From Actinomycetota bacterium (GTDB taxonomy: Bacteria > Actinomycetota > Geothermincolia > Geothermincolales > RBG-13-55-18): a stretch of DNA of 64,000 nt. Where the stretch lies: assembly GCA_013178005.1 (NCBI GenBank), contig JABLXL010000017.1, positions 1-64,000 of the forward strand, written 5' to 3'. Shown one piece after another: positions 7,410 to 37,436 of this stretch. The notes beneath the pieces are model-generated. The model did not search any database. It saw only the letters and a program-made list of their open reading frames with translations, and had not been told where the DNA came from. The position numbers and the translations under genes were made by a program. Numbering within the stretch: the stretch's first letter is position 1; each line of letters opens with the position of its first letter.

Positions 7410-8750
<1,341 letters not shown>

Positions 8751-8753
8751 CGC

Positions 8754-10592: not shown

Positions 10593-10689
10593 CTTCACCC
10601 CTCTGTCGCTTGTTCCGGGGTCCTTGGCGTCCTAGGCTGGTATGGCCATGATTTCGGCGATGGATGAACGGCTGATCTCGCGTGTCCGG

Positions 10690-13839: not shown

Positions 13840-14778
13840 TCAGCCTCCTATGGTGGCGATGATGCCTTTATCTTCCAGAACATCCAGCAGGTCGTCGACC
13901 TCGCTCACCGACAGGCTCGCGACGTCCCTGTACGGCCATTCCCGGCCCAGCCAGCGGTACTTGTCCTGGCACCAGTTGTGGAAGGGCAGCAGGTCCACCT
14001 GCAGAAGGGAGGGCCCCAAGCCGGCCAGGAACTCGGCCACCTTCTCCATGTGTTCCACCGAGTCGTTGAAGCCCGGGATCACTGGTATGCGCACGATGAC
14101 GCTCTCTCCCGCCTCCGCCAGCCTGCTCAGGTTGGCGAGGATGGGGGAGTTGCTGACCCCCGTGCGCAGGAGGTGCTGCTTGCCGCTCAAGCACTTGATG
14201 TCGTAGAGGAAGATGTCCACGAAAGGCCGCAGCGTCTCCAGCACCTCCCACTCGCAGAACCCGCTGGTGTCGAGGCAGGTGTGGATGCCTCTTTCCTTGG
14301 CGCCCTTCAGGAGCTCCAGAGTGAATTCGGGAAAGGCCGTGGGCTCGCCGCCGGTCACCGTCATGCCGCCCCCGGAGTTGAGGTAGAAGGGCATGTCCCT
14401 TTCCACCTCCGCCAGGACCTCATCGACGGTTCTCGGCTCTCCGACCTTCGCGAGGGCGCCGTACACGCATGCCTCGACGCAGGCCATGCAGAGGTCGCAG
14501 CGCGAGAGGTCTATTTTGTAATAATGGTCGTTTTCGTCCTCGGCGCCCAGGGCGATGGGGGGTTGGACGGCGCCCTTCTCGCACGCGGAAAAACACCTTC
14601 CGCACTGCCTGCACAACGACTGCTTCCAGTAGATCTCGGGGCCGAAGTCGATGCACTCCGGGTTGTGGCACCAGGCGCAGTTGAGCCGGCACCCCTTGAG
14701 GAAAACCGTGGTGCGAATGCCCGGCCCGTCGTTGATGGAATATCGCTGGATGTTGGTGACCAAAGCCACAGGTCCCAT
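13840..14778 (-). CDS. glycyl-radical enzyme activating enzyme (radical SAM)
   Basis: About 312 aa. The radical-SAM site is C-x3-C-x2-C in GCRLNCAWCHNPEC near residue 30. An inserted ferredoxin-like segment (CRQCGRCFSAC and CDLCMACVEAC) provides two further 4Fe-4S clusters, typical of BssD-type activases and unlike short PflA. TGGEP binds SAM. It abstracts hydrogen from the conserved glycine of its partner. ATG 14778 is chosen because the protein then starts MGPVALVTNIQRYSINDGPG as in the family; an upstream extension to 15030 is low-complexity and overlaps another gene. It sits between the two small-subunit genes on the same strand. Confidence 0.93.
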   Translation of the reverse strand: MGPVALVTNIQRYSINDGPGIRTTVFLKGCRLNCAWCHNPECIDFGPEIYWKQSLCRQCGRCFSACEKGAVQPPIALGAEDENDHYYKIDLSRCDLCMACVEACVYGALAKVGEPRTVDEVLAEVERDMPFYLNSGGGMTVTGGEPTAFPEFTLELLKGAKERGIHTCLDTSGFCEWEVLETLRPFVDIFLYDIKCLSGKQHLLRTGVSNSPILANLSRLAEAGESVIVRIPVIPGFNDSVEHMEKVAEFLAGLGPSLLQVDLLPFHNWCQDKYRWLGREWPYRDVASLSVSEVDDLLDVLEDKGIIATIGG

Positions 14779-14864
14779 TTCCGCACCCCCGCTCTCCGCT
14801 TCCCGGCGGGACGGCGATAGCCGCCCCGCCGCACGCGGCGTTCCGCGTTCCGCGTCCATGTCGC

Positions 14865-15038
14865 CTAGGTCTTCTGCAGGGATTTCTCCGCCCGCTCCTC
14901 GGCGAGCTCGTTGACCACCACCCACCCGTAGCATTTCGGACATTCCCGGTAGGCGGTCTCGGCGTCGAGGGTGGTGTTGTAAAGGTAGCGGAATTCGGAC
15001 TTCACGCCCTCGTATCCGCAATTTTCGCATTTGACCAT
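14865..15038 (-). CDS. small zinc-ribbon protein, 57 aa
   Basis: Reads MVKCENCGYEGVKSEFRY, then CPKCYGWVVV, then a charged helix ending at TAG 14865. Two CxxC pairs suggest a single zinc ribbon. AGGAGGT lies eight bases before ATG 15038, overlapping the stop codon of the preceding gene, so the two are probably cotranslated. It is related in layout to the zinc ribbons at 15043-15270 and 12937-13284. Its role is unknown; all three flank the activase and small subunits of the radical enzyme. Confidence 0.75.
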   Translation of the reverse strand: MVKCENCGYEGVKSEFRYLYNTTLDAETAYRECPKCYGWVVVNELAEERAEKSLQKT

Positions 15039-15296: not shown

Positions 15297-15596
15297 TTAT
15301 TTCTCGCGCAGCTGACGCTGGGGGCGGAACTCGGGATCCCACATGAACTCGCTGGTGTCCGTGCGCATGCGCTCTATTTCCAGGAAATGGGGACAGCCCG
15401 CGGCGTCGGTGTTGTCGAAGACCACCTTGTTCTTCTCCCCGTCCTTTATCGCCGTGCAGAAGCCGTCCCCCGCCGCCGAGGCCGAGTTCTGCCGGAAGTT
15501 CCTGCACATGGCGCAGGCCTTCTCGGGCATCTCCCGGCGTCCCTTGGTGATGGCGCCCTGGATCCACTGCTGGCGCAACTGCTCCCAATCGGTCAT
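15297..15596 (-). CDS. X-succinate synthase small subunit (BssB/beta-like), 99 aa
   Basis: Four cysteines at residues 28, 31, 47 and 68 (CxxC-x15-C-x20-C) repeat the spacing of the 51-aa subunit, within CAMCRNFRQN and GFCTAIKDGE. An N-terminal WEQLRQQWIQGAI helix and a C-terminal extension make it longer. This matches the second Fe-S subunit of benzylsuccinate/alkylsuccinate synthase, which sits on the catalytic subunit and limits access to the active site. ATG 15596 has AAGGGGGT upstream. It is the gene immediately downstream of the catalytic subunit, with a 54-bp gap. Confidence 0.83.
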   Translation of the reverse strand: MTDWEQLRQQWIQGAITKGRREMPEKACAMCRNFRQNSASAAGDGFCTAIKDGEKNKVVFDNTDAAGCPHFLEIERMRTDTSEFMWDPEFRPQRQLREK

Positions 15597-15650: not shown

Positions 15651-18140
15651 TCATGCGCCCAGTTCCTGCACGTTGCGGGCGATGATGGTGTCCTGGGTCT
15701 TCTTGTTGAGGTCCACGAAATGGGCGCTGTAACCGGCGATGCGCACGATGAGCTCGGGATACTTCTCGGGCTCCTTCTGGGCCGCCTTCAGGGTCTCGTT
15801 GTCCACCATGTTGAACTGCACGTGGTCGATGCCCAGGTCCGCCCAGGTCTTGATGTAGGAGTACCAGACATGGAAACCCTTCTCGCCCGCCAGCTGCTGG
15901 GGCGAGAGCCTCTGGTTGAGCAGGGTGGCGCGCACGTCGCCGATGTGGTCGATCTTGGCCACCGAGCGAAGCACCGCCGTGGGCCCCTTCTTGTCCATCC
16001 CCGCTCCCGGTGAGCAGCCGCCGTCGTAGAGGGTGTCGCCCAGCCGGCGCCCGTTGGGCAACGCCCACACCTTGGTGGCGTTGGTCACGTAGGCGGCGAT
16101 GTTCTCCGGCAGGGGAGGCCATGGGTTGCCCGTGGGGTCCTTGATCTCCCAGGAGTGCCTGGCCACGTCCCGGTGACAGCGCACGTGGATCTGGTCCACG
16201 TAGTCGTCGTCGTTGCCCCACTTGGGCGCGCGCACGAAGTCCATGCGCATCTCCTCGTAGCCTTCCCAGTTGGCCTTCAGGGCCTCGATGAGCTGGGGCA
16301 TGGTGTACTTCTTCTCGTCGAAGACCAGCTTCTTCACCGCGGCCAGGCTGTCTCCCGTCTCCATCCAGGCAAAGAAGGTTATCCAGGAGTTGCCGCGTTC
16401 GCTGGGGTGGGAGGAATCGACGCCCAGCTCCACGCAGCGCTCGTAGAGCCCGGAGAGCAGGGGACGGGGGTCCAGGTACTGCGCCATGTATCGCCCGCCG
16501 TTGGTCAGCTTGACCAGGGTGTCCATCATCCACTTGATCTGGGTATACCAGGCCTGGTAGAGCTCCTCGAAGGACTCGAACCTGGAGGCGTCCCCGGTAT
16601 GGGGGCCGAACTGCATCTGGAGGGTGTTGTCGTAGCCGTCGAAGAGCGCGTACTCGATGGCCTTGGCGGCGATGATGGTGGCGTTGGCCATGCGGAAGGG
16701 CTGGCAGCCCAGCTTGGTGTCCGGGCAGGGGGACATGCAGGCCTGGTGCACCCAGCGGCGCGCCTCCCTCAAGGGGTGCTTGTGCCAGTGCATGGCGTTG
16801 GTTATGAGCACGGGGTCGTTGCGCATGGAAGGGTATCCCAGCCCCTGGCGGATGCACTCGAAGACCTGCCGCAGGGTGGACATCCTCGCGCCCGGGTGGT
16901 AGCGGAAGGCGAAGGTGGGGTTGGCCACCCTCACCAGCCTCGCCGCCTCCAGCAGGCAGTCGGTCATGTCGTTGCAGGCGTCCGTCCCGTCCTCGTTCAC
17001 CCCTCCGATGGTCCATACCCAGGTGCCGGTGATCCCCTGCAGGGTGTCGCGCGCCAGCATGAGCCAGAACCACCCCACTTCGTAGCAGCGGATGAGGAAC
17101 TCCCCGGTCAGGTCCAATGCCTCCTCGCGGGTGAGGACCTTGTCCTGGTTGACGTCCTTCTCGTAGAAAGGTCCGTGCCAGTAATCGGGGCGGGCCGGCC
17201 ATGCGCCCTCGCAGGCCTCGTACCGGCAGGCGATCTGGATGAAGTGGTCGAACTGCAGCGACTCGTGCAGGTGCTCGGGGGGACGCGCCGGGACCTTCTC
17301 GCACACCTCGGCGATGCGCAGGAGCTCCTCCTTGCGCTTGGGGTCGGTCTCGAAGTTCTCGGCGATTATCTTGGCCAGCCGGCTGTAGCGCCGCGCCCAG
17401 CGGATCACCGCCTCCAGCACCACCTTCATGGACTTCCATACGTCCAGCTTCTCGTAATAGGGAAGCTCGTCGGGGTCGGGCACCTTGTCGTAGATGTGCC
17501 TCTCGGCCTCGGCGATCCTTTCGTCGATCTCGGCCAGGATGCCCTCCAACCCGAGGCGGAACATGTAGTCCCACTGCTTGGTGGCGTAGCCTATGCGCGA
17601 GATGGGAAGGCCCCATCCGATGACCCCGGTGAGGAGCTTAACGATCTCCTCGGGTGGCACCAGGTTGAAGACCTTGGCCCCGGCGCAGATGGGGTTCCAG
17701 TAGTCGCACAGCTCCCTGATGAGGGCCAGGCTCTCCGCCTCCGGCTCCGGGATCACCGTGCGGTCGTTGTAGAGGTCCTCGTTCAGGAGGAAGAGGATCT
17801 CCGGGTGCCACACGATGGTGTGAGGCCGCGACCCCAAATACCCCATGATCTGGGCGTTGTCCTGGATGAAGATGGTAATGTTGTCGAACACGTTCGCCAG
17901 CGCCTTGGCGTAGCGCATCCTCAGGCTGTCCGCCTCGTTGGCCTTGAAGGCCTCGGTGAAGAGGACGGCCCTCTCCAGGTCCACCTTCACTCCCGGGTTG
18001 TAGCCCGAACCCTTGGCCCCCTTCTTCCATACCGCCTTGCGCAGGTAATCGAGGCGCTTGGAGCGTTTATGTTCCGCCCACCACCACCATTGACCGCTCT
18101 TTTCGATCTCCTCGATGGTCCTTGTCTCTACCGCTGACAT
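15651..18140 (-). CDS. glycyl-radical enzyme, X-succinate synthase type (benzyl-/alkylsuccinate synthase-like catalytic subunit)
   Basis: Catalytic subunit of 829 aa, the normal size. The C-terminal radical loop reads VRIAGYSAHFVDL with the radical glycine at about residue 803. The thiyl cysteine is C468 in HQACMSPCPDTKLG; the MSPCP-x-TK context and the following QPFRMANAT are features I associate with BssA/AssA fumarate-adding enzymes, not with pyruvate formate-lyase or glycerol dehydratase. The Glu two residues after Cys found in arylacetate decarboxylases is absent. Two Fe-S small subunits and a ferredoxin-type activase follow on the same strand, as in bss/ass operons. ATG 18140 (AGGGGGTAGG upstream) is preferred to GTG 18143. 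The reaction is probably radical addition of a hydrocarbon to fumarate; toluene, alkane or another substrate cannot be distinguished here. Confidence 0.9.
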   Translation of the reverse strand: MSAVETRTIEEIEKSGQWWWWAEHKRSKRLDYLRKAVWKKGAKGSGYNPGVKVDLERAVLFTEAFKANEADSLRMRYAKALANVFDNITIFIQDNAQIMGYLGSRPHTIVWHPEILFLLNEDLYNDRTVIPEPEAESLALIRELCDYWNPICAGAKVFNLVPPEEIVKLLTGVIGWGLPISRIGYATKQWDYMFRLGLEGILAEIDERIAEAERHIYDKVPDPDELPYYEKLDVWKSMKVVLEAVIRWARRYSRLAKIIAENFETDPKRKEELLRIAEVCEKVPARPPEHLHESLQFDHFIQIACRYEACEGAWPARPDYWHGPFYEKDVNQDKVLTREEALDLTGEFLIRCYEVGWFWLMLARDTLQGITGTWVWTIGGVNEDGTDACNDMTDCLLEAARLVRVANPTFAFRYHPGARMSTLRQVFECIRQGLGYPSMRNDPVLITNAMHWHKHPLREARRWVHQACMSPCPDTKLGCQPFRMANATIIAAKAIEYALFDGYDNTLQMQFGPHTGDASRFESFEELYQAWYTQIKWMMDTLVKLTNGGRYMAQYLDPRPLLSGLYERCVELGVDSSHPSERGNSWITFFAWMETGDSLAAVKKLVFDEKKYTMPQLIEALKANWEGYEEMRMDFVRAPKWGNDDDYVDQIHVRCHRDVARHSWEIKDPTGNPWPPLPENIAAYVTNATKVWALPNGRRLGDTLYDGGCSPGAGMDKKGPTAVLRSVAKIDHIGDVRATLLNQRLSPQQLAGEKGFHVWYSYIKTWADLGIDHVQFNMVDNETLKAAQKEPEKYPELIVRIAGYSAHFVDLNKKTQDTIIARNVQELGA

Positions 18141-18872
18141 CACCTACCCCCTTTGCGAAATACTCCTGAAGTCCCCGGATTTTGCTCTCATGAACCGAAA
18201 ACCATGGGAATCCGAACGCCTTATGACCATCCCCCTCTCGACCAACCCCCTTAGCTTTTTCCCTCCGGTCAGCATACGTGCCGCGTGGCCGGGGAGTTAC
18301 CGAAGCCACCTTTTCAAGCCCTCGTTCCCTTCCGCCGGCACGTCCGCCGTCGCCCTGGAACGGCGAGCTGCGTGTTTCCCGCGGCCAACTTGGCCACCCG
18401 CAGCGGCGGAGCTGCGCTTTCCCGGTCGTCTACCTTTAACGCGCGACGGGAAAGAGGCCTTCCGCCACGCTGCGTATGGTGAAAGTCTGGGCTTTCCGTG
18501 GTTGTGGCATATGGGTTGCGGTGTTCCCTGGAGCGAACCTGGCTATGAGGAGGGCGCGATGTTTGCGAATGATATTTCTTGCGTTATTCAGTTCTGCGAA
18601 TGTGCCTTCCAGACTTAACTTTTTTCACTATACTTTTAGTAACCAGTTAATAATATGGCTACGTATTGCCTGCTAGATTGCCGGATATGATATTGCTAAT
18701 TTTAGAAAAGGTGAACCTATTTTGCAAGGGGAATTTTCGGCGATTCCATATGCCGACAAAGAGCTTTCTTCCCGGCGCCGGATGGCGGGCCGCCGCACCA
18801 TCCCCCGATCTTTGACAGCCCCGACCGCTTTCCATAATATCTTTGCTGTGTGCGTATGAAATGGGGCTCCTT
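18141..18872. other. divergent intergenic region upstream of the glycyl-radical operon
   Basis: About 730 bp, with an AT-rich segment around 18600-18700. It must contain the operon promoter (minus strand) and that of the HEPN-MNT pair (plus strand). I cannot point to a specific promoter or operator with confidence, and no gene is supported. Confidence 0.4.
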
Positions 18873-19259
18873 ATGAAGGAAGAGACATCAAACTGGCTTG
18901 AATCCGCCTCTTATGACCTTGAGACGGCCCGGCATATGCTCGACGCAGGTCGCTATATCTACACCGTGTTCATGTGTCACTTGAGTATCGAGAAATCGCT
19001 GAAGGCGGCGGTGGTCGAAAACACCGGGACAACGCCGCCGAGAACACACAACCTGGGGACTCTTCTTGGCCTCAGCGGGCTTTCCATCGGTGCCGATGAG
19101 GAGGAGTTCCTGCTCGAGTTGAGCAACCTGAGCGTGGCGACCAGGTACCCAGAGGATTTCCACCGGGCGATGGAGGATTTCTCTAAAGAGAGGGCGGAGG
19201 CGGTGTATTTGCGGAGCGAGAGGATCGTGGGATGGATCGGGAGTTGCTTGCGGAAATAA
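18873..19259 (+). CDS. HEPN domain protein (toxin of HEPN-MNT pair)
   Basis: About 128 aa, all-helical HEPN of the PF05168 type. The conserved stretch CHLSIEKSLKA, then TPPRTHNLGTLL, and the TRYPEDF motif near residue 100 are family hallmarks. Partners of this type are RNases or targets of AMP transfer by the adjacent nucleotidyltransferase. Start choice is uncertain (ATG 18873 or 18861; neither has a strong ribosome site). It overlaps the next gene by 28 bp, the usual arrangement for this two-gene toxin-antitoxin family. Confidence 0.85.
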   Translation: MKEETSNWLESASYDLETARHMLDAGRYIYTVFMCHLSIEKSLKAAVVENTGTTPPRTHNLGTLLGLSGLSIGADEEEFLLELSNLSVATRYPEDFHRAMEDFSKERAEAVYLRSERIVGWIGSCLRK

Positions 19260-19564
19260 ACCGTTATAGAAAAAACCTCGCCTCACTGGGCGTCAAGGCT
19301 GAAAAGATCGTTCTCTTCGGATCTCGCGCGAGGGGTGGGGGTGGAGAATACAGCGATATCGATCTGCTGGTGGTCTCGGACGATTTCGAGCGCATGGATC
19401 TCTTCGAGAGGCTCTCCTTGCTGGGGAGGGCGTGCAAAGGTATTAATGTGGCCATGGATGTCATTGGGTATACGGAGAGCGAGTTGAAAGCCAAGGGAAA
19501 AAGCTCCTTCGTCGTGAGCGAGGTGCTCGAAAAAGGCACGGAAGTGCCCGTCGTTGGCGTTTGA
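19232..19564 (+). CDS. MNT-type minimal nucleotidyltransferase (antitoxin)
   Basis: 110 aa. The nucleotidyltransferase signature GSRARG...YSDIDLLVV (GS-x-DxD) is present, with a further acidic residue in the DVIGYT segment. In characterised HEPN-MNT pairs this protein AMPylates the HEPN partner to silence it. ATG 19232 lies inside the end of the HEPN gene, indicating translational coupling. The GGGG insertion in the GSRARGGGGEYSD loop is slightly long but acceptable. Confidence 0.87.
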   Translation: MDRELLAEINRYRKNLASLGVKAEKIVLFGSRARGGGGEYSDIDLLVVSDDFERMDLFERLSLLGRACKGINVAMDVIGYTESELKAKGKSSFVVSEVLEKGTEVPVVGV

Positions 19565-19841: not shown

Positions 19842-20642
19842 CTACCTGCCCTTGAAGACGGGATCGCGTTTCTCGCGGAAGGCGGCGAGCCCCTCGCGCG
19901 CGTCCTCGCTCGCCAGCGCCTGGCCCATGATCGCGCCGATCTCCTCGCGTTCCTCTTCGGTGAGGGCCACGCGCTTGTCCAAGATGCGTAAAACCTTCTT
20001 GTGGCCGGACACGGAAAGGGGGGCGTTGGCCGCGATCTCCCGCGCCAACGCTTCCGTGAACGATTCCAGCTCCTCGTCGGGGACCAGGTAATCAAGCATC
20101 CCCAGGCGCAGGGCCTCCGTGCCCTCGAAAAGCCTCGCGGTGAAGAAAACCAGCTTTGTGGTGGGCATCCCGAGGTTGCGGATGAAGCGGTGCAGCCCCT
20201 CCGGCGGATAAACGATACCCAGCCTGGCCGGCGGCATGCCCATGCGGCAGCCCTCAGCCCCCACGCGCAGGTCGCAGGCCATGCTCGTCTCGCACCCCGC
20301 GCCCACGCAGTATCCCCGTATCATGGCGATGACCGGGAAGGGGCAATCCTCTATGGCTTCGAGGCCGAACTGCAGCGGCCCCTTGCTCTCGATCCGGCGC
20401 TGCACTTCCTCCGGAATGCCCTCCGGCAACGCCGACAGGTCCATGCCCGCCGAGAAGGCCTTTTCCCCGGCTCCCCTGAGTATGGCGCAACGCACCTCGC
20501 CCTCCGACGCCAGCTCCTCCAGGACGCCCGCCAGGGACACCAGAAGGGTGGAGGAGAGCGCGTTGCGGCGGTGGGGGCGGTTGATGGTGAGCACCGCCAG
20601 CTCTCCCCTTCTCTCGACCAGCAGCTCCGCCTCCTCGTTCAT
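19842..20642 (-). CDS. crotonase-fold decarboxylase, methylmalonyl-CoA decarboxylase (ScpB)-like
   Basis: 266 aa crotonase. Oxyanion-hole segments are FSAGMDLSALP and YCVGAGCE. The two catalytic glutamates of enoyl-CoA hydratase are not conserved: the first position falls in PPARLG and the second in PTTKLVFFTA, so hydration is unlikely. From memory, the sequence aligns end to end with E. coli methylmalonyl-CoA decarboxylase (VRCAILR, LGIVYP, LVFFTA, REGLAAFREKRDP). The active-site Tyr is kept (LGIVYP) but the His of SAGHD is Met here. ATG 20642 has AAGGAGG upstream. It sits between the radical synthase and the CoA ligase, so an alkyl- or methylmalonyl-CoA substrate is a reasonable inference. 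Confidence 0.8.
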   Translation of the reverse strand: MNEEAELLVERRGELAVLTINRPHRRNALSSTLLVSLAGVLEELASEGEVRCAILRGAGEKAFSAGMDLSALPEGIPEEVQRRIESKGPLQFGLEAIEDCPFPVIAMIRGYCVGAGCETSMACDLRVGAEGCRMGMPPARLGIVYPPEGLHRFIRNLGMPTTKLVFFTARLFEGTEALRLGMLDYLVPDEELESFTEALAREIAANAPLSVSGHKKVLRILDKRVALTEEEREEIGAIMGQALASEDAREGLAAFREKRDPVFKGR

Positions 20643-20878: not shown

Positions 20879-22408
20879 TCAAGCGTACTGTTTGCGCAGC
20901 TCTTTCTTGAGGATCTTCCCGGTGAGCGTCCTGGGTATGGTCTCCACGTGGGTTATCTTCTTGGGGATCTTGTAGCGCGCAAGCTTGCCATCGCAAAAGG
21001 CCTCAAGTTCCTCAAGGGTGACGGGGTCGCCCGGGTTTTCCGGCAGGATGAGGGCGTGGCCCACCTCGCCCCACTTCTCGTCCGTCATTCCTATTACCGC
21101 GACGTCCCTTATCTTGGGGTGCTCCATGAGCACCTTCTCCACCTCGGCGGGATAGATGTTCTCGCCGCCGCTGATGATCATGTCCTTCTTGCGGTCAACC
21201 ACGTAGATATATCCGTCCTCGTCCACGGTGGCCAGGTCGCCGTAATGGAACCAGCCGTCCTTCATGGCCTCCGCCGTCTCCTCGGGCATGTTCCAGTACT
21301 CCAGCATCACGTAGGGGCCGCGGGAGCAGATCTCCCCTACCTCACCCGAGCCTGGCTTTACCTCGGTGCCGTCCTCCTTCAGGACCTTGACCTCGGCGTG
21401 GAACATGGGAATGCCCGCGCTGCCAACCTTTTCCATGTTGGAGCAGGAGAGCACGATGGAGGTCTCGGTGCACCCGAAGACCTGGATGAGCAGGGGGACC
21501 TTCATCTTCTCCACGATGCGGTCCAGCAGCTCCCTGGAGGCGGGCGCGCCGCCGATGCCCACGCCTTTCAGGGACCCGAGGTCGTACTTGTCGAAGTCCG
21601 GCACGTCCAGCATCATCTGGAGCATGGTGGGCACGGCGCCGAAATGGGTGACCTTGTGCTCGGAGATGATGCGCAGCGCCTCCTCGGGATTCCAGAACTT
21701 CTGCAGGATTATGGTGCCGCCGGCGTAGAAGGTGGGCATGGTGATGATGTTGAGCCCCCCGGAGTGGAAGAGGGGTATGGCCACCAGGGACACGGCGTCC
21801 AGGTCGAAGAGCAGCTCCAGGGCGTCGTTGAAGGTGTTCCAGAAGGTCTTGCGGTGGGGAAGGACGGCGCCCTTGGCCCTCCCCGTGGTCCCGGAGGTGT
21901 ACATGATGAGCTGCGGATCCTCCATGTCGGGCGGCTCCGGGACGTGCGGCTCGTCCTCGCTGCGCCCCTGCAGCCATTCCTCGTATGGCTGGGCGAAATC
22001 CGGGACCATGTCGCCAACCGCCGCCACCACGGGCATAGGGGCCTTGTAGAGGTTGAGCAGCTCGCCCATGGTGCCGGCGAACTCCGAGTGGAAGAAGAGC
22101 GCGCGCGTCTCGGTGTCCTCGAAGATGTCCTTGAGCTCGGCCGGGGTGAGGCGGAAGTTCAAGGGTATGAAGATCAGCCCCAGCTTGGCGCACGCGAAGT
22201 ATATCTCCATGAACTCGGGACAGTTGAAGAACATCCCCGCCACCCGGTCTTGTTTGCGCAGGCCCGCCGCGAGCAGCCCGTCGGCCGCTTGGTTGACCCT
22301 GCGGTTGAACTCCCTGTAGGTGAGGGTCCTATCCCCGTAGATGAAGGCCGTCTTGTCCCCGGTGAGGGGGAACAGGGCCCGCTTCGTCGCCCAGTCGCCA
22401 ACGTTCAT
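20879..22408 (-). CDS. AMP-dependent acyl-CoA ligase
   Basis: 509 aa ANL-family ligase. The phosphate loop MYTSGTTGRAKGA, the YGDLATVDEDGYIYVVDRKKD hinge and the C-terminal Lys in LTGKILKKEL are all present. It activates a carboxylic acid to its CoA thioester with ATP. ATG 22408 begins the conserved N-terminus; its upstream region contains a duplicated copy of the same 5' end (see repeat). Given neighbours, it is the candidate to activate an alkyl- or benzylsuccinate-type product (an AssK-like role), but family membership alone would also fit medium- or long-chain fatty acids. Confidence 0.9.
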   Translation of the reverse strand: MNVGDWATKRALFPLTGDKTAFIYGDRTLTYREFNRRVNQAADGLLAAGLRKQDRVAGMFFNCPEFMEIYFACAKLGLIFIPLNFRLTPAELKDIFEDTETRALFFHSEFAGTMGELLNLYKAPMPVVAAVGDMVPDFAQPYEEWLQGRSEDEPHVPEPPDMEDPQLIMYTSGTTGRAKGAVLPHRKTFWNTFNDALELLFDLDAVSLVAIPLFHSGGLNIITMPTFYAGGTIILQKFWNPEEALRIISEHKVTHFGAVPTMLQMMLDVPDFDKYDLGSLKGVGIGGAPASRELLDRIVEKMKVPLLIQVFGCTETSIVLSCSNMEKVGSAGIPMFHAEVKVLKEDGTEVKPGSGEVGEICSRGPYVMLEYWNMPEETAEAMKDGWFHYGDLATVDEDGYIYVVDRKKDMIISGGENIYPAEVEKVLMEHPKIRDVAVIGMTDEKWGEVGHALILPENPGDPVTLEELEAFCDGKLARYKIPKKITHVETIPRTLTGKILKKELRKQYA

Positions 22409-23121: not shown

Positions 23122-24483
23122 ATGAACGAGCTCGCGGAAGTGGCGAAATTCGTGTGCGGCCTTAAGTACGAGGACCTTGCAGCTGAGGTGGTGGAGGCGG
23201 CAAAGACGCCCATCATAGACTGCCTGGGCGTTACCGTGGCGGGGCTCGAGGACGACTGCTCCCGTATCGCCGCCGAGTGGGTGGAGTCCCTGGGCGGCAA
23301 GGAGCAGGCCACCGTCTTCTACGGGTTCGGTCGCACGGCCGCGCCGTGGGCGGCGCTGGCCAACGGCACCGCTGCTCACGCCCTGGACTACGACGACGTC
23401 AGCTTCCGCATGATGGGGCATCCCTCCGTGGCCCTGGTGCCGGCCATCGTCGCTCTGGGCGAGCTGCTTTCGTCCAGCGGAAGGGATTGTATAACCTCAT
23501 ACGTGGCCGGCCTGGAGGTGGCGGCGAAGGTGGGGGCGGCGCTGGGAGGAAATTCCTACATGCTGGGCTGGCATCGCACCAGCACCATGGGGGCGCTGGG
23601 CGCGGCGGCCTCCTGTGCCCGCCTGATGGGGCTGGGCGAGGAACAGACCACTCACGCCCTGGGCATCTCCTGCTCGCTCTCCAACGGCATCCGCGCCAAT
23701 TTCGGCACCATGACCAAGCCCCTCCACGCGGGCATGGCGGCCATGAACGGCATCATCGCGGCGCAGCTCGCGAGCCGTGGCTTCACCGCCAACCCCGACG
23801 CGCTGTACGGGGAGAACGGCTTCGCGCGCGCCTTCTCGGACGACACCGACAAGGCCGAAGAGCTGCTCGCGACCCTGGGCGAGCCCTATGAGCTCATGGA
23901 GCCGGGGCTTTCCTACAAGCCCTATCCCTGTTGCCGTGGCCCGCAGGGAGCCATCGACGCTGCCCTGGCGGCGCGCGAGGAAGCGCTGAAGGGGGGCGGC
24001 ATCGACGCAGCGGAGATCGAGAAGGTGGAATGCAGGGTTCCGGGGTGGCTGCGCTCGGTGCTCACCTACCACGAGCCAAAGTCCGGGCTGGAGGGAAAGT
24101 TCAGCCTGGAGTTCTGCGTCACCGCCGCGCTCCTGGAGGGAAAGGTGGGGGTGGGCCAGTTCAGGGACGAGGTGGTCACCTCCGCTCCCGTGGTGGAGAC
24201 CATGGCGAGGTTCGACTGGCAGGACCTGGAAGGAGAGATCACCAGCCCCTTTGCCTCCGAGGTGGTGGCCCACTTCAAAGGAGGCCGCACGGCGGTGGGC
24301 AAGGCGGAAAAGCCCCTGGGGGAGCCGGGCAACCCCATGAGCGAGGAGCAGATTCACGATAAGTACCTCGAGTGCGTGGGGAGCATCATCAATCCAGACG
24401 TGGCGCGGCGCACCCTGGAGATGCTCAAGGGGCTGGACGCCCTCGAGGACGTCAACGAGCTGGTGCGCGCGTACAGGGCTTGA
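23122..24483 (+). CDS. MmgE/PrpD family protein
   Basis: 453 aa, full length for the family. The N-terminal helical domain carries IDCLGVTVAG and HALDYDDV, and GHPS, GLGEEQTTHALG and KPLHAGMAAMNG follow. The family includes 2-methylcitrate dehydratase, cis-aconitate decarboxylase and uncharacterised dehydratases. ATG 23122 has GAGGAGGGG upstream. It is the only plus-strand gene within the radical-synthase/mutase locus. A role in propionate or branched dicarboxylate handling is suggested by neighbours; no prpB/prpC is present, so methylcitrate-cycle assignment is not supported. Confidence 0.88.
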   Translation: MNELAEVAKFVCGLKYEDLAAEVVEAAKTPIIDCLGVTVAGLEDDCSRIAAEWVESLGGKEQATVFYGFGRTAAPWAALANGTAAHALDYDDVSFRMMGHPSVALVPAIVALGELLSSSGRDCITSYVAGLEVAAKVGAALGGNSYMLGWHRTSTMGALGAAASCARLMGLGEEQTTHALGISCSLSNGIRANFGTMTKPLHAGMAAMNGIIAAQLASRGFTANPDALYGENGFARAFSDDTDKAEELLATLGEPYELMEPGLSYKPYPCCRGPQGAIDAALAAREEALKGGGIDAAEIEKVECRVPGWLRSVLTYHEPKSGLEGKFSLEFCVTAALLEGKVGVGQFRDEVVTSAPVVETMARFDWQDLEGEITSPFASEVVAHFKGGRTAVGKAEKPLGEPGNPMSEEQIHDKYLECVGSIINPDVARRTLEMLKGLDALEDVNELVRAYRA

Positions 24484-24735: not shown

Positions 24736-25158
24736 TCAGCTATCTCCGCCGGAGATTCCCAGCTTCTCCCTTATGAAGTCAGCCACCTGGCTGATGTAGG
24801 TGCCGGAGACGAAGACCTCCGCCACCCCCATCTCCTTGAGCTTGGGGATGTCCTCCTCGGGGATGATCCCCCCTACCAGCACCAGCTTGTCCCCGATGCC
24901 CTTTTCCCGGAGCAAGCCCATGAGGCGTTTCACGATGCTCAGGTGCGCCCCGGAGAGGATGGAAAGGCCGATGACGTCCACGTCTTCGTCCAGGGCGGCG
25001 TTGGCGATGTCCTCGGGGGTGCGGCGCAACCCGGTGTAGATGACCTCGAAGCCGGCGTCCTTGAGCCCGTAGGCTATGACCTTGGCCCCCTGGTCGTGTC
25101 CGTCCAGGCCCGGCTTGGCGATTAGCACCCTCGCCCTGGCCTTTTCCCTCGTATCCAT
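24736..25158 (-). CDS. B12-binding small subunit of acyl-CoA mutase (McmS-like)
   Basis: 140 aa, a stand-alone cobalamin-binding domain as in archaeal-type and sulfate-reducer split methylmalonyl-CoA mutases. The DGHDQGAK stretch gives the D-x-H-x-x-G motif whose His coordinates cobalt; LSILSGAH and VGGIIP complete the B12 site. ATG 25158 is preceded by AAAGGAGGT. The catalytic subunit lies about 2.9 kb upstream on the same strand, beyond a radical-SAM gene. The two together would form an adenosylcobalamin-dependent carbon-skeleton mutase. Confidence 0.92.
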
Positions 25159-25223: not shown

Positions 25224-25602
25224 TCATTCCCGTATCGTCTCGCAACGCAGCAGCTCCAACGGTATCCCCGTCTTCCGCTCTATGTCGAGGTACGGCCTGC
25301 CCAGCAGGTCCCCGGCCCATTTCCTCGGTCGATACATCTAGGTTCGAAAGTTCGATTCCCTTTTATTCCCATATCGTCTCGCAACGCAGCAGCTCCACCG
25401 GTATCCCCGTCTTCCGCTCTATGTCGAGGTACGGCCTGCCCAGCAGGTCCCTGGCCCAGCCCCCCAGGTGACGACTCCGGGTAGGGTTTCCCGCTCATTC
25501 CCAAATCGTCTCGCAATGCAACAGCTCCACCGGTATCCCCGCCTTCCGCTCTATGTCGAGGTACGGCCTGCCAAGCAGGTCCCTTGCCCAGCCCCCCAGG
25601 TG
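25224..25602 (-). repeat. three direct copies of a gene 3' end, each with stop codon
   Basis: Copies lie at 25495-25602 (the true end of the radical-SAM gene), 25363-25470 and 25224-25320, about 108 bp each. All three can be read in frame as WAxDLLGRPYLDIERK..GIP.ELL.CETI.E followed by a stop (TGA, TAA and TGA). They differ by scattered mostly conservative substitutions, indicating age or selection rather than assembly error. Confidence 0.88.
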
Positions 25603-27870
25603 AAACGGGGAGGACGGGACGAGGACGAGGTCCGGCCTCTCCCTGCCAGATGCGGCCTTTTCCAGTATATAGGAGACGAAATCCTCCACCACCAGAAGGT
25701 CTCCCAGTATGATGTTGCCCCCGAAATAGCGGTTCTCCGGCACCCCCAGGGCAAGCGTGCAGCCATCCGGCAGCGAAAGGGGCCGCTCTCGCAGGAGCTG
25801 TTCCAGGGTGGGCCTCACCAGCGCCGAGGTGAGCAGGAGCGGGCGCCGCGCGCCCCGTGCGTGGATCACGGCCTGGACCTCGTCCAGGTAACGCGGCCTG
25901 AAGCCCGAGCCCATGAAAACCGCTCCCAGGTGCGCGGCAACCCGCGGGTCGTAGGGGTAGGCATACTCGCGGGCGTCGCCGGCCAGCTCGAGTTCCTCGT
26001 CCCTGCGTCGCACCCTTATCGAGAACTCGCCCGCGCTCTGAGCAAGGGACAAGAGGTCCCTTGCCTGGGGGCGGCAGCTCACCGGCGTGCCGTTGACCGC
26101 CGTGACCAGGTCCCCCACCGAAAGCCCGGCGCGAGCCGCGGGGGATCCGGGCACTGTCCCAATGACCTCGGCCCGGTTCTTGTCCCGCCTGGTAAGGTTT
26201 TCCTCGTACATGGCCGGGCTCACGAAGACGGGGCAGGAGACCTCGCGGCGCATATCCTGGGCCTCCCTGACCACCTCCGGCCAGACGGACGCGGTGTCGA
26301 AGGGCTCGGCAGGGGAGTGAAAGCGAGAGAAGCCCGGCAGGTTGACCTGCACCATGCTCGCCCCCGACGCCTCCGCGTGCCGCACCGTGGAGCGCAGGTC
26401 GTAAAGCATCTCCTCCAGCGAAGGCAAAGGCCAGGCGACGATGGTCACCGCGAAGGGTATTCCCGCCTCGGCCAGTCGGGGCAGCGCCCTTATCGCCCTC
26501 ACCGGTTCCGGGTCTCCCATGAGCATGGCGCGCCGGAGCGGCGAGGAGCTGTTGAGGGAGACGTCGAGGAACACCGGGGAGAGATCGGCAAGGGCGGCGA
26601 TCGTCTCCCCGTCGATGGCGCCTCCGTTGGTGGAGAAGCGCAGGGGCGCGTCGGTGCGCGCGCGTATCTCGCGCAGCACACATAGGGCGCGGGGGTGGGC
26701 GAGCGGCTCGCGGGGGCTGCCGAAGCTGGGGAAGAGGCCGGTTCCACCCCCGGCGTTGTAGAGCTTGAGCCGGGCGGAAAGCTCCCTCGATTCGTCGTCC
26801 AGGCTTCGCGGCGCTTGGCGCAGGGTGCGGGGCGCTCCCCGGTTGTAGCAGAACACGCAGTCGAACTGGCAGCGGCTCGCGGCATGCTGGATCACGTCCG
26901 ACGGCGTGGCGGCGTGCGGACCCACCCAGTCGTCGAGGTCGCGCAGGCGGAAGCCGTCCGGCCTGACCGGCTTTCCCCCGCGCTCCAGCTCCACCACGGA
27001 GAGGAGGCTCGCGAGTTGCCTTGCTATGAACTCCACGCGAGGCTCGTACAGGGAGGCGTTTGCCAGATCGCGGTACCCGCACGACCCCCTGCCCTCGTCT
27101 TCCGCCGCGGGCGACGGGACATCCAGGGCAGGGCTGGTTCCCTCGCCCTTCCCGCCGAGCTCACCCCGCTCGCCGTGGGTTCCGTCTCCACCCGGCTCGT
27201 ACCCGCGCTCGTTCCGCAAGGATTCATCCCGGTGCGCGTCGGCAGTCCCCGATTGAACTGCCGCCACGTCCTTTCCATTCCGGGCGGCGTCGTTCCCGGT
27301 TGGGCTGCTTGCGATTGCCAGGCGGGCGGCGTCGAGTCCCGGATCCGTAAGGCCGAATGCCGTGAAGGGCGTTTTTGGAAACAGCTCGTGTGATTTGCTC
27401 TCCGCCAGGAAGCGGAAGGAGTCCACGGCCACGTCCTCGCCCTCCTTTTGTGGAACCGCGACGTCGAGGATGTTGCGGATCTGCCAGCGCATCATCTCCG
27501 CCAGGCGGCCGGGGCCGGGCGGAGCGTTCCCGGGGAGGGCGGGGAGAGGGTAGCGGAAAACGCAGTCCGCCTCGCCCTTTTCATCGTGACCACCCGCGCC
27601 GTTGGCGTGGCCGCTTTCCCGGCCCCGCTCCGCGAGGAGCTCGCCTGTCTCGTCGGCCGGAAGCGAACCCTCATGGAGGAGAAAACCCGGCCCGACCACG
27701 CCGTAGGGATAGCCGATGGCGGGGCACGGTTCCCTGTTTACCTGACCGAGCCCGGTGTCCTCTCCCCCGCCGCGCGCGCGCCCGGGGGTTTTCGACCCCT
27801 CTCGGGATGAAGCGCGCTCCCCGGTGGGGAACGGGGTTGCGCCGAGATCAATATCCCTGGTTTTCTCCAT
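25495..27870 (-). CDS. radical SAM protein with C-terminal PDZ and DUF512-like domain
   Basis: About 791 aa. Residues 1-270 are a low-complexity, Gly/Glu-rich N-terminal region with islands of conserved-looking sequence. The radical-SAM site is SRCQFDCVFCYNRG (C-x3-C-x2-C near residue 336), with the TIM barrel extending to about 560. A PDZ domain follows (VIGTVPGSPAARAGLSVGD, about 568-625), then a C-terminal domain resembling the end of DUF512 proteins (GDLLVVEDFV, LVLVPSSPF). ATG 27870 or GTG 27876 both fit GGGAGG upstream. DUF512 proteins usually place PDZ first, so the order here is reversed. Position between the two mutase subunits hints at maturation or repair of the mutase, but this is speculative. 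Confidence 0.8.
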   Translation of the reverse strand: MEKTRDIDLGATPFPTGERASSREGSKTPGRARGGGEDTGLGQVNREPCPAIGYPYGVVGPGFLLHEGSLPADETGELLAERGRESGHANGAGGHDEKGEADCVFRYPLPALPGNAPPGPGRLAEMMRWQIRNILDVAVPQKEGEDVAVDSFRFLAESKSHELFPKTPFTAFGLTDPGLDAARLAIASSPTGNDAARNGKDVAAVQSGTADAHRDESLRNERGYEPGGDGTHGERGELGGKGEGTSPALDVPSPAAEDEGRGSCGYRDLANASLYEPRVEFIARQLASLLSVVELERGGKPVRPDGFRLRDLDDWVGPHAATPSDVIQHAASRCQFDCVFCYNRGAPRTLRQAPRSLDDESRELSARLKLYNAGGGTGLFPSFGSPREPLAHPRALCVLREIRARTDAPLRFSTNGGAIDGETIAALADLSPVFLDVSLNSSSPLRRAMLMGDPEPVRAIRALPRLAEAGIPFAVTIVAWPLPSLEEMLYDLRSTVRHAEASGASMVQVNLPGFSRFHSPAEPFDTASVWPEVVREAQDMRREVSCPVFVSPAMYEENLTRRDKNRAEVIGTVPGSPAARAGLSVGDLVTAVNGTPVSCRPQARDLLSLAQSAGEFSIRVRRRDEELELAGDAREYAYPYDPRVAAHLGAVFMGSGFRPRYLDEVQAVIHARGARRPLLLTSALVRPTLEQLLRERPLSLPDGCTLALGVPENRYFGGNIILGDLLVVEDFVSYILEKAASGRERPDLVLVPSSPFHLGGWARDLLGRPYLDIERKAGIPVELLHCETIWE

Positions 27871-28072
27871 GCTCACAGGTCCTCCCGAGTTATAGGCGCG
27901 GGCTCAGGTTCCATGCCCGCGGCAGGCTGGCCCGGTGTCTTCTTGAGCCAACCCCGGCCTTCGAACGGCCTTGTACGCATGGCGGGAAGCGCCGGACCGG
28001 GCGCCTTGAAGCGACAACAAGACAGGCCTGCTCCATGCGCTAGGCGGGCCGCCAGGGCTTCGACCCCTGCCC

Positions 28073-29833
28073 TCAGAAGGGGGAAACCGCCTTGTATTCG
28101 CCGAACACCTGGCGGAGCACCCCGCAGATCTCCCCCTCGGTTACGTAGGCCTTCACGCATTGCACGAGGTGCGGGAGGAGGTTTTCCTCTTCCTTGCGCG
28201 CCAGGGACTCAAGCTCCTTGAGCAGGCGGGAAACCTCCCGGCCGTCGCGCTGCCGCTTGATCTCCTGGAGGCGCGCCTTCTGCTTCTCCTCGGCGCGCTC
28301 CCTCTTCTCAGGGTCGTAGGGGTTGGCGACCAGGCGGTTGGTGGTCACCTCCAGCTCGTTCTCTCCCGTGAAGCAGTTGACGCCCACCACCAGCCGCTCG
28401 CCTCTCTCCATGGCGCGTTGACGCTCGTAGGCGCTGCGCGAGACCTCGCGCTGCATGTAGCCGTTCTCGATGGCCGCCACCGCGCCGCCCATTTTCTCGA
28501 TCTTTTCCAGCTCCTCCCAGGCGGCGTTTTCGATCTCGTCGGTGAGGGATTCCATGCAGTAGGAGCCGGCGAAGGGGTCGGTGTACTCCAGCAGGCGGGC
28601 CTCGCAGGCGATGATCCTGCCCGCGTCCTGGGCCAGCTGCAGGGCTTCCATGCTCCACCCCAGCCCCAGGGGCTCGTCGTAGGGCGGGAAGGGAAGGGGC
28701 CGCCCCCCAGAGAGCACGCTGGCCACCGCGCCGATGACCGCCCGGGTGAGGTTGTTGAGGGGGCGCTGCAGGGTGGTGGACGAGGGCCCGATGTGCGCCC
28801 CGATAGCCTGGCGTATGCGCATGCTGCGCGGATCCTCGGCCCCGAACCTCTCCTTGAGGATGCGGGCGTACATGCGGCGGGCCGCGCGCTGGAAGGCCAC
28901 CTCCTTGAGCAGTTCCATGCTCCCGCCGAAGGCGTTGAAGGTGAATCGGGGGGCGAACTCGTCCACGTGCAGTCCCGCGTCCACGCCCACCTGCAGGTAG
29001 GCGATGGCGTTGGCCATGCTGAAGGCGAGGTCCTGCTCGCGCGTGGCTCCCGCCTCGCGGATATGGTAGCCGCCTATGGAGGTGATGTTGACGTTGGGCA
29101 TGTTGCGGGTGAGGAAGACCAGGCTGTCGCGGAACATGCGCAGCGCGTGTTTGGGGGGGAATATGTAGGTGCCACGGGCGATGTACTCCTTGAGGATGTC
29201 GTTCTGCGGGGTGGCGCGCAGCTTTTCCAGCGGCACGCCGCGCTTTTCCGCCAGGGCGGCGTACATGGCGATGATCACGTTGGCGGGGGCGTTGATGGTG
29301 AAGTTGGAGGCGATGTTGTCGAGGTCGAGGTCCCCGCGGTAGGGCTCGTAGATGATTTCGAAATCCGCGAGGGTGTCCACGCACACCCCCACCTTGCCCA
29401 CCTCGCCCTCCGCCAGAGGGTCGTCCGAGTCGTACCCGCACTGCGTGGGCAGGTCGAAGGCGAGGTTCGGCCCGCCCCTGCCGCCCTGCTCCAGCAGCCC
29501 CTTGTAGTAATCGCGGGTGTCCTCGGGCGTGCCGTATCCGGAGTAGATGGCGGCGCGGGTCTGGCCTCCGGCCCCCGGTATCTCCCCCTTCCCGGCCATG
29601 GACGCCAGCCTTGCCAGGCCAGTCATGGGCTCGATGGGGAAGGTGCCCGCGGTGTAGGGGTAGGTGCCGGGAAAGCCCACCTTCTCCAGAAAATCGAAGC
29701 CCTCGAGGGCGTCGGGCGAATAGAAACGCGCGCTCTCCGCGTTCAGGTAAGGAAACTTCTTCAGGGCCTTGGCCAGCGGCCCCTCCTCCCAGGCCTTGCG
29801 CGCCTCCTTTATCCTCTCCAGGTCCTCGCTCAT
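28073..29833 (-). CDS. acyl-CoA mutase large subunit, methylmalonyl-CoA mutase family (McmL-like)
   Basis: 586 aa catalytic TIM-barrel subunit without its own B12 domain. Conserved core segments include AFDLPTQCGYDSDDPLAEGE, ATPQNDILKEYIARGTY, GGYHIREAGAT and ARNTQ-region equivalents. The N-terminal lid is unusual: canonical methylmalonyl-CoA mutases have a YPTMY...RQYAGF stretch contributing Tyr and Arg to substrate carboxylate binding, whereas here AGTFPIEPMTG is followed by a Gly-rich insertion of about 20 residues before YSGYGTPEDT. This suggests a different acyl substrate. ATG 29833 has GGGGGGAAG upstream. In hydrocarbon degradation such mutases rearrange alkylsuccinyl-CoA to alkylmalonyl-CoA; that role is inferred from the neighbours. 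Confidence 0.88.
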   Translation of the reverse strand: MSEDLERIKEARKAWEEGPLAKALKKFPYLNAESARFYSPDALEGFDFLEKVGFPGTYPYTAGTFPIEPMTGLARLASMAGKGEIPGAGGQTRAAIYSGYGTPEDTRDYYKGLLEQGGRGGPNLAFDLPTQCGYDSDDPLAEGEVGKVGVCVDTLADFEIIYEPYRGDLDLDNIASNFTINAPANVIIAMYAALAEKRGVPLEKLRATPQNDILKEYIARGTYIFPPKHALRMFRDSLVFLTRNMPNVNITSIGGYHIREAGATREQDLAFSMANAIAYLQVGVDAGLHVDEFAPRFTFNAFGGSMELLKEVAFQRAARRMYARILKERFGAEDPRSMRIRQAIGAHIGPSSTTLQRPLNNLTRAVIGAVASVLSGGRPLPFPPYDEPLGLGWSMEALQLAQDAGRIIACEARLLEYTDPFAGSYCMESLTDEIENAAWEELEKIEKMGGAVAAIENGYMQREVSRSAYERQRAMERGERLVVGVNCFTGENELEVTTNRLVANPYDPEKRERAEEKQKARLQEIKRQRDGREVSRLLKELESLARKEEENLLPHLVQCVKAYVTEGEICGVLRQVFGEYKAVSPF

Positions 29834-32080: not shown

Positions 32081-32974
32081 ATGAAAGCGAAGAAGGTAAG
32101 AGGAATATCTTGGGTCTGCGCTGTGTTCCTTGCCGTTATTCTCACAACGTATTGCCCCCTATCGCTGGTTCCTATACGGGAAGCAAATGCACAGGAAACA
32201 GCAAGCGGGACAGTGCAGGGCAAAGGTGCGAATGGCGGGGTAGTTGCGGGAGGTGTGGATATAGTTGACGCGGGGACCATAGCCAGGGACATGTTCCCGG
32301 GCGTTGAGCCCCGATCACGAGAAGAAATCCTCGCCCCCCACGACCCCTATAGCAGGACTACGGAGAATCCCGATGGAACCTTGAGCAAGGAGATCTTTCT
32401 CGACCCCATTAACTTCAAGGGCGAGGATGGTTTATGGCACGTGATCGACAATACAATGGTCCGGCAGGAAGTGGGCGATTACCGTTTTGTAAATGCTTCA
32501 AACCATTTTAAGCTCAGGCTCGCTGGCAAAGGCAACGATAAGAGCCTGGTTTCGCTTGAACTTGATGGCAAGAAGCTTGGCATGGGGTTCACGGGCTACA
32601 TGAATGGGCCCTACAAGGGCGACGTGCGCAAAGTCATCCTGCTCCTTGAAAAGCGCAAACAACTGTTCGAAAAAGCGGGACAAGCAATGTGCGAGCAGGT
32701 TCGCCAGCTCTCGTCAGCGATAGAGATGCTGCGGGAGATGAGTATTGAAGAGATCATGAGCGGGTCGCCGCTACCATTCATACAGCACCGCGGGTCGATG
32801 CTCCTCCAAAGCTGGATTGCGTGTCAGAAAGCAACCAGGCCTACTACTATCACGCCGAGAAGGGCTACAGCCTTGAGTTCACGGTGTTCAATTCAACCGT
32901 GGAACAGGTCATCAAGCTGGATTCTCCCGTTTCCCCCAATGTCTTCAACTTCAGGCTCAACTTGGAGGGCATAG
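32081..32974 (+). pseudogene. RHS/YD-repeat protein, N-terminal segment (before frameshift)
   Basis: Begins at ATG 32081 with a signal peptide (MKAKKVRGISWVCAVFLAVI, cleavage near NAQ-ET), so the protein is secreted. The next 200 residues contain the SKEIFLDPINFKGEDGLWHVIDNT module common at the start of large secreted RHS proteins. Somewhere between about 32740 and 32820 the reading frame shifts: downstream codons in this frame become nonsense while frame +2 continues as VDAPPKLDCVSESNQAYYYH. The stop at 32974 therefore reflects the shift. It belongs with the next two segments as one gene of about 7.1 kb. Confidence 0.75.
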
Positions 32975-37338: not shown

Positions 37339-37436
37339 CCTATTCCAAGAGCGCGTGGGGAAACAACGTTTCCGTCGCCTATGCTTATCGGGACACCGGG
37401 GAGCATTCCGCCCTGACCCTGCCCAACGGGGATACC

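What the first reader, a model, noticed from the sequence alone, without database searches (positions are those of the whole stretch)
19842..20642. Crotonase that is a decarboxylase by sequence, with an altered catalytic residue
Both hydratase glutamates are missing, and the whole chain resembles E. coli methylmalonyl-CoA decarboxylase. The Tyr in LGIVYP is retained, but the His of the SAGHD motif is Met (SAGMD). The combination suggests a decarboxylase with a remodelled pocket, perhaps for a bulkier malonyl-CoA.
Basis: partly seen in the sequence, partly recalled or inferred. Interest (0 to 1): 0.65.

Follow-up and report, generated by a model that had tools for sequence, protein, structure and literature searches.

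The report
Candidate missing decarboxylase of anaerobic alkane degradation
This gene sits inside a bacterial cluster for eating oil alkanes without oxygen, and it is very probably the enzyme that removes CO2 from the bulky malonyl-CoA intermediate, a step for which no gene has been firmly assigned.

Summary
A 266-aa crotonase lies at 19842-20642 on the minus strand. Both hydratase glutamates are missing, Tyr145 is present and residue 67 is Met. The gene lies in an alkylsuccinate-synthase (ass/mas) cluster: glycyl-radical enzyme (nearest solved structure MasD), activase, CoA ligase, divergent B12-dependent mutase and MmgE/PrpD. This fumarate-addition pathway makes (2-methylalkyl)malonyl-CoA, which must be decarboxylated. 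Published reconstructions give that step to a biotin-type carboxyltransferase (PccB/'mcd'), but this 97%-complete genome has no PccB/MmdA gene, only AccA and AccD.

Orthologues sit in the same gene set in Actinomycetota and Desulfobacterota; 27 of 35 loci lie within 10 kb of mutase, ligase or AssA genes. They form one clade, well separated from hydratases and isomerases and on the same side as E. coli methylmalonyl-CoA decarboxylase (ScpB/YgfG). Tyr145 is in all 51 family members and both ScpBs, and in none of 37 other crotonases.

It works like ScpB but is not a member of the ScpB equivalog. Met67 is probably a minor change: the position is Tyr in Desulfobacterota and His in ScpB. The activity itself is inferred, not shown.

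The parts
19842..20642 (-). crotonase, proposed (2-methylalkyl)malonyl-CoA decarboxylase
   Evidence: ORF and Pfam; tree and signature; context
20442..20444 (-). codon of Met67 (SAGMD; His66 of ScpB), oxyanion-hole position
20208..20210 (-). codon of Tyr145 (LGIVYP; Tyr140 of ScpB)
20229..20231 (-). codon of Pro138, which replaces the first hydratase Glu
20879..22408 (-). AMP-forming acyl-CoA ligase (AssK), ends 236 bases upstream of the crotonase
28073..29833 (-). B12-dependent acyl-CoA mutase large subunit, divergent; keeps the Tyr and Arg of methylmalonyl-CoA mutase
24736..25158 (-). B12-binding small subunit of the mutase
25495..27876 (-). radical SAM-PDZ protein between the mutase subunits, conserved in the cluster
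15651..18143 (-). glycyl-radical alkylsuccinate synthase catalytic subunit (AssA/MasD)
   Evidence: best solved relative MasD 9o8u, 1111 bits against 569 for benzylsuccinate synthase
15297..15596 (-). 99-aa protein, candidate small subunit of the synthase, conserved next to AssA
   Evidence: no family match; conserved in relatives
13840..15030 (-). glycyl-radical activase (AssD); domain starts near residue 90
   Evidence: TIGR02494 341 bits
23122..24483 (+). MmgE/PrpD protein, recurrent in ass clusters; possible alkylsuccinate epimerase (inference)
   Evidence: conserved; also reported in D. alkanexedens (PMC7180275)
7410..10598 (-). pyruvate carboxylase subunits A and B (probable fumarate/oxaloacetate supply)

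Best explanation
The protein is the decarboxylase of anaerobic n-alkane degradation by fumarate addition. AssA adds the alkane to fumarate to give (1-methylalkyl)succinate. AssK makes the CoA thioester. The divergent B12 mutase (large and small subunit) rearranges it to (2-methylalkyl)malonyl-CoA. The crotonase then removes the free carboxylate to give 4-methylalkanoyl-CoA, which enters beta-oxidation. Mechanism by analogy with E. coli ScpB/YgfG: backbone NH groups of Met67 and Gly114 hold the thioester oxygen, Tyr145 positions the carboxylate in a pocket with no glutamate base, CO2 leaves, and the resulting enolate is protonated. Shown here: the sequence features, the conserved gene set, the co-occurrence, the clade, and the lack of a detectable PccB-type gene in this genome. 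Inferred: the reaction, the exact substrate and the residue roles.
For: (1) Cluster content in the window: AssA (nearest MasD), AssD, AssK, divergent mutase L and S, MmgE. (2) In its class 10 of 31 genomes have AssA; 9 of these have the crotonase, and in the tenth the contig starts 110 bases before AssA. In G018 the contig likewise ends inside AssK, where the crotonase should follow. (3) Gene order shuffles but the set persists. G015 has an operon mutase S - mutase L (only 44% identical, a different mutase) - AssK - crotonase; in G014 the crotonase lies directly upstream of the mutase. (4) In 395 Desulfobacterota genomes a close orthologue occurs in 11 of 18 AssA-positive genomes and 7 of 377 others (Fisher p 1e-12, not corrected for kinship). 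Several of the 7 still carry it beside the mutase (L190-L193). (5) 27 of 35 orthologue loci have mutase, ligase or AssA within 10 kb; none of the 33 other crotonase loci L005-L037 has AssA or the mutase nearby. (6) Genome G000 has no full-length PF01039 protein; its two hits are AccA and AccD, and the window's biotin enzyme is pyruvate carboxylase. (7) Tree: the ass-linked crotonases of both phyla fall in one clade (99/93); hydratases, isomerases, MenB, CaiD and PaaF split off with 100/95, leaving ScpB on the family's side (in one search ScpB is sister with 100/93). (8) Tyr145 in 51/51 members and 2/2 ScpB, 0/37 others. (9) The AlphaFold model (pLDDT 92.9) has its highest TM-scores with ScpB structures (0.85-0.88 by query length), against 0.71-0.83 for the other listed crotonases. 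(10) The window mutase keeps the Tyr and Arg typical of mutases for dicarboxylic acyl-CoA. (11) E. coli has the same logic: scpA mutase and scpB decarboxylase in one operon.
Against: No activity data. Only one enzyme in the wider clade (ScpB) is characterised, and its branch is long (about 1.8). Curated cut-offs for ScpB and PRK06127 are not met. Orthologues or sister proteins with the same Tyr and Pro occur where no ass genes were found nearby or in the genome (G023, G109, G373, and the 50-56% group in G001-G004, G009, G024), so the signature is not specific for this substrate. Some Desulfobacterota clusters carry a PF01039 carboxyltransferase as well (L177, L179, L188), so the roles could be shared there. 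The genome is a 98-contig, 97%-complete assembly, so the lack of PccB is strong but not absolute.
Confidence: 0.74

Rival explanations
1. The decarboxylation is done by a biotin-dependent carboxyltransferase (PccB/MmdA or transcarboxylase type), as published reconstructions assume, and the crotonase does something else.
For: Literature assignment to pccB/pccA/mcd carboxyltransferase (PMC9576796, PMC10811727, PMC6776118, PMC5606693, PMC8163825). Such a gene stands near the crotonase in L177, L179 and L188.
Against: No full-length PF01039 protein in G000, G030, G021, G025 or G026, although all carry AssA and the crotonase. The two hits in G000 are AccA and AccD.
Confidence: 0.1
2. It is an epimerase or isomerase of the pathway (for example of alkylsuccinyl-CoA or alkylmalonyl-CoA), using the same enolate-stabilising pocket without decarboxylation.
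For: An epimerisation step has been proposed for the pathway (Jarling 2012, cited in PMC3653055). Crotonases stabilise enolates.
Against: The Tyr/Pro signature and tree position match a decarboxylase. MmgE/PrpD, whose fold includes an iminodisuccinate epimerase (from memory), is a more natural epimerase candidate. No other decarboxylase for the step was found in the genome.
Confidence: 0.08
3. It is an enoyl-CoA hydratase or isomerase for beta-oxidation of the methyl-branched acyl-CoA.
For: Automatic annotation would call it enoyl-CoA hydratase (PRK06127 best hit).
Against: Both catalytic Glu are missing. The hydratase/isomerase group is separated with 100/95 support. The genome has 14 other crotonase matches.
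Confidence: 0.05
4. The alkylmalonyl-CoA is oxidatively decarboxylated by an acyl-CoA dehydrogenase as IaaF does with benzylmalonyl-CoA, and the crotonase only has a supporting role.
For: IaaF accepts hexylmalonyl-CoA weakly (PMC8360864). An acyl-CoA dehydrogenase lies at 1461-2921.
Against: That dehydrogenase lies about 11 kb from the ass genes and has no match beside the ass clusters scanned, whereas the crotonase is conserved there.
Confidence: 0.03

Closest known systems
E. coli methylmalonyl-CoA decarboxylase ScpB/YgfG (1EF8, 6N92)
   Same: Crotonase fold, best profile hit in the PDB (162.9 bits, level with 5ZAI at 162.6), highest TM-scores, Tyr in LGxxY, Pro at the first Glu position, no hydratase glutamates, encoded beside a B12 acyl-CoA mutase.
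   Different: 35% identity; Met67 instead of His66; GYCVGAG instead of GSVWGGA; below the equivalog cut-off; clustered with alkylsuccinate synthase, so a larger substrate is expected.
PRK06127 (NF004781) enoyl-CoA hydratase subfamily, uncharacterised
   Same: Best NCBIfam hit; clear members also carry Tyr at the 145 position and lack the first Glu.
   Different: Below cut-off (219 of 291 bits); a separate branch; those examined sit beside CaiB CoA-transferases on proteobacterial plasmids.
ECHDC1 ethylmalonyl-CoA decarboxylase (animals)
   Same: Enoyl-CoA-hydratase-domain enzyme that decarboxylates ethyl- and methylmalonyl-CoA (PMC6717113, PMC8473548); suggests that the fold accepts larger malonyl-CoA.
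   Different: Animal enzyme; not compared by sequence here.
Biotin-type PccB/'mcd' carboxyltransferase of alkane pathways
   Same: Assigned to the same step in the literature.
   Different: Unrelated function class, biotin dependent, no such gene found in this genome.

Membership tests
ScpB/YgfG methylmalonyl-CoA decarboxylase (NF008506 equivalog) | score at or above 257 bits | tested here: not met
   195.5 bits; E. coli ScpB itself 487 bits
ScpB/YgfG methylmalonyl-CoA decarboxylase (NF008506 equivalog) | Tyr140 equivalent and no hydratase Glu pair | tested here: met
   Tyr145, Pro138, Leu164
ScpB/YgfG methylmalonyl-CoA decarboxylase (NF008506 equivalog) | His66 of SAGHD | tested here: not met
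   Met67; Tyr in Desulfobacterota orthologues
ScpB/YgfG methylmalonyl-CoA decarboxylase (NF008506 equivalog) | encoded with a B12 acyl-CoA mutase | tested here: met
   mutase L and S in the cluster; scpA-scpB in E. coli
ScpB/YgfG methylmalonyl-CoA decarboxylase (NF008506 equivalog) | decarboxylase activity | not testable with these tools
   needs enzyme assay
Enoyl-CoA hydratase | two catalytic glutamates | tested here: not met
Enoyl-CoA hydratase | tree position among hydratases | tested here: not met
   split 100/95
PRK06127 (NF004781) | score at or above 291 bits | tested here: not met
   219.2 bits
Fumarate-addition (ass/mas) alkane cluster | AssA/MasD-type glycyl-radical enzyme with activase | tested here: met
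Fumarate-addition (ass/mas) alkane cluster | CoA ligase and B12 mutase for carbon-skeleton rearrangement | tested here: met
Fumarate-addition (ass/mas) alkane cluster | growth on alkanes or alkylsuccinate metabolites | not testable with these tools
   genome known only from sequence
Biotin-dependent PccB/MmdA decarboxylase | full-length PF01039 carboxyltransferase other than ACC in the genome | tested here: not met
   only AccA and AccD

The most novel reading that the evidence does not exclude
A dedicated, biotin-free crotonase family, (2-methylalkyl)malonyl-CoA decarboxylase, is a core part of bacterial alkane degradation by fumarate addition in at least two phyla, and the published assignment of this step to propionyl-CoA carboxylase-type enzymes is wrong for these organisms.
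Probability: 0.62. Interest if true: 0.75.

Novelty: new variant of a known kind. Interest (0 to 1): 0.66.

Why it matters
Alkylsuccinate synthase is the standard marker for anaerobic oil degradation, yet the genes for the steps after it are, in the words of one paper, 'unclear' (PMC8163825). A specific gene for the decarboxylation makes that question testable with one enzyme assay, supplies a second marker for alkane degraders, and changes the energy budget: a simple decarboxylase neither saves the carboxyl group for fumarate regeneration nor pumps sodium. It also extends the pathway cluster to deep-branching Actinomycetota (relatives of the Solincola and Geothermincola MAGs).

Tried and rejected
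Ordinary hydratase or isomerase: rejected by residues and tree. Met67 as a special adaptation: weakened, the position is Met, Tyr or His in the clade and its near relatives. Biotin carboxyltransferase in the same genome: searched (PF01039), only AccA and AccD. Malonyl-CoA decarboxylase MLYCD (PF05292): no hit in 11 genomes, but no control genome rang, so that absence is not shown. First structure model from 11 close sequences was poor (pLDDT 53) and was not used; a 48-sequence alignment gave 92.9. Apparent exceptions G018 and G029 proved to be contig breaks; G023 remains unexplained. A third phylum (400 Chloroflexota genomes) gave one AssA-positive genome on two short contigs without the downstream genes: no information. 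Papers on the ScpB mechanism and on strain AK-01 did not turn up in the library searches, so residue roles rest on general knowledge.

Full report
The gene. The window holds an ORF of 266 codons on the minus strand, 20642 to 19842, with a good ribosome site before its ATG. Pfam and NCBIfam place it in the crotonase superfamily. Its best NCBIfam models are PRK06127 'enoyl-CoA hydratase' (219 bits, cut-off 291) and the ScpB methylmalonyl-CoA decarboxylase equivalog (195.5 bits, cut-off 257), so neither curated name applies. Identity to E. coli ScpB is 35%.

The surroundings. The glycyl-radical enzyme at 15651-18143 matches 1-methylalkylsuccinate synthase MasD (9o8u) with 1111 bits, against 569 for benzylsuccinate synthase. 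Around it stand the activase, an AMP-forming CoA ligase, a B12 mutase small subunit, a mutase large subunit, an MmgE/PrpD protein and a radical SAM-PDZ protein. This is the cluster type described for Desulfoglaeba alkanexedens (assABCDE, mutase subunits, MmgE/PrpD; PMC7180275). The established pathway is: alkane + fumarate to alkylsuccinate, CoA ligation, rearrangement to an alkylmalonyl-CoA, decarboxylation, beta-oxidation (PMC3653055). Papers assign the decarboxylation to PccB, pccA or 'mcd' carboxyltransferases by postulate (PMC9576796, PMC10811727, PMC6776118, PMC5606693), and one states that the genes 'remain unclear' (PMC8163825).

Conservation of context. Named relatives are Candidatus Solincola and Geothermincola MAGs at 67-76% identity; the window genome itself is unnamed. 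In 31 genomes of the class, AssA occurs in 10 and the crotonase (at least 67% identity) in 9 of those; the tenth contig begins 110 bases before AssA. Gene order varies: AssK-crotonase-AssA in most, crotonase-mutase in G014 (L003), mutase S-mutase L-AssK-crotonase in G015, where the mutase is only 44% identical to the window's. A conserved partner despite a replaced mutase speaks for function, not mere inheritance. In 395 Desulfobacterota genomes, 18 have AssA. Close crotonase orthologues (E at most 1e-90) occur in 11 of these 18 and in 7 of 377 others (Fisher p 1e-12, uncorrected for kinship), and several of the seven still place it with the mutase (L190-L193). Of 35 loci examined, 27 have a mutase, ligase or AssA gene within 10 kb. 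As a contrast, the 33 more distant crotonase loci L005-L037 show neither AssA nor the mutase.

The competing enzyme is missing. A PF01039 search of the window genome found only two half-length hits, which NCBIfam matches best to AccA and AccD of acetyl-CoA carboxylase; the biotin enzyme in the window (7410-10598) is pyruvate carboxylase A and B. AssA-positive G021, G025 and G026 have no PF01039 match at all. In some Desulfobacterota a PF01039 gene does lie near the crotonase (L177, L179, L188), so both candidates coexist there.

Tree, signature, model. In a tree of 72 crotonases the ass-linked proteins of both phyla fall in one clade (99/93), which also holds their sister proteins from ass-negative genomes and one long-branch plasmid protein. 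A branch with 100/95 support separates the hydratases, isomerases, MenB, CaiD, PaaF and the window genome's own paralogues from a set that holds this clade, ScpB, a Halorientalis protein and PRK06127-like proteins. An earlier tree made ScpB the sister with 100/93; with more relatives ScpB is near but not exclusively sister, and its branch is long. Tyr145 occurs in 51/51 family members and 2/2 ScpB but 0/37 others; the first Glu position is Pro in 49/51 and in ScpB. Position 67 is Met in Actinomycetota, Tyr in 33 of 34 Desulfobacterota members, His in ScpB. The AlphaFold model (pLDDT 92.9) gives its highest TM-scores with ScpB structures, 0.85-0.88; the other crotonases listed give 0.71-0.83, many with a different C-terminal arrangement.

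How it probably works. By analogy with ScpB, the thioester oxygen is held by two backbone NH groups (residues 67 and 114), Tyr145 orients the carboxylate, and loss of CO2 leaves an enolate that is protonated. ScpB has Trp before the second oxyanion glycine (SVWGG); the window protein has Val (YCVGAG), and the Desulfobacterota orthologues Tyr or Phe. Whether this widens the pocket is inference; no coordinates were available for overlay. The window mutase keeps the Tyr and Arg that mark mutases for dicarboxylic acyl-CoA, consistent with an alkylsuccinyl/alkylmalonyl-CoA pair.

Limits. No enzyme activity was tested. Sister proteins with the same signature exist where ass genes were not found (G001-G004, G009, G024; also G023, G109, G373), so the signature means 'ScpB-like chemistry' at most, and the substrate is inferred from context. 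Genomes are draft assemblies; the AssA search scored only two candidates per Desulfobacterota genome.

Verdict. Works like: ScpB decarboxylase, with confidence 0.74 for an alkylmalonyl-CoA substrate. [quoted passage not shown] New variant of a known kind, and of real interest because it gives a concrete gene for an unassigned pathway step.

Noticed in passing
window 18843-19564 (+): Small ORF plus nucleotidyltransferase pair, probably HEPN/MNT toxin-antitoxin type, inserted between AssA and the crotonase; no match to it was found in the relatives' loci scanned.
   Followed up: partly
window 25495-27876 (-); L181, L190, L192, L193: A radical SAM-PDZ protein lies between mutase large and small subunit in both phyla; clusters that lack it tend to have an ArgK/MeaB GTPase, so it may be a mutase maturation or repair factor.
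   Followed up: partly
window 23122-24483 (+): MmgE/PrpD protein recurs in nearly all complete ass clusters; its fold family includes epimerases and decarboxylases, so it is a candidate for the proposed alkylsuccinate epimerisation.
   Followed up: no
L214-L217 (proteobacterial plasmids): PRK06127-like crotonases, most with LGxGY-type motifs, sit beside CaiB CoA-transferases, some near a malonyl-CoA synthase or tricarboxylate transporter gene; probably also decarboxylases rather than hydratases.
   Followed up: partly
L060-L065 (G001-G004, G009, G024): Sister crotonases (50-56% identity) with the same Met and Tyr in ass-negative members of the class; several stand in tandem with a second crotonase.
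   Followed up: partly
L001 14754-16664, L083, L128, L137: Tandem copies of the glycyl-radical activase in several ass clusters.
   Followed up: no
window 32821-39176 (+): Large RHS/YD-repeat proteins downstream of the alkane cluster.
   Followed up: no
plasmid collection records NZ_OL790696.1, NZ_CP141089.1, NZ_CP134663.1: Whole E. coli chromosome-sized records listed as plasmids, each with an scpB match.
   Followed up: no
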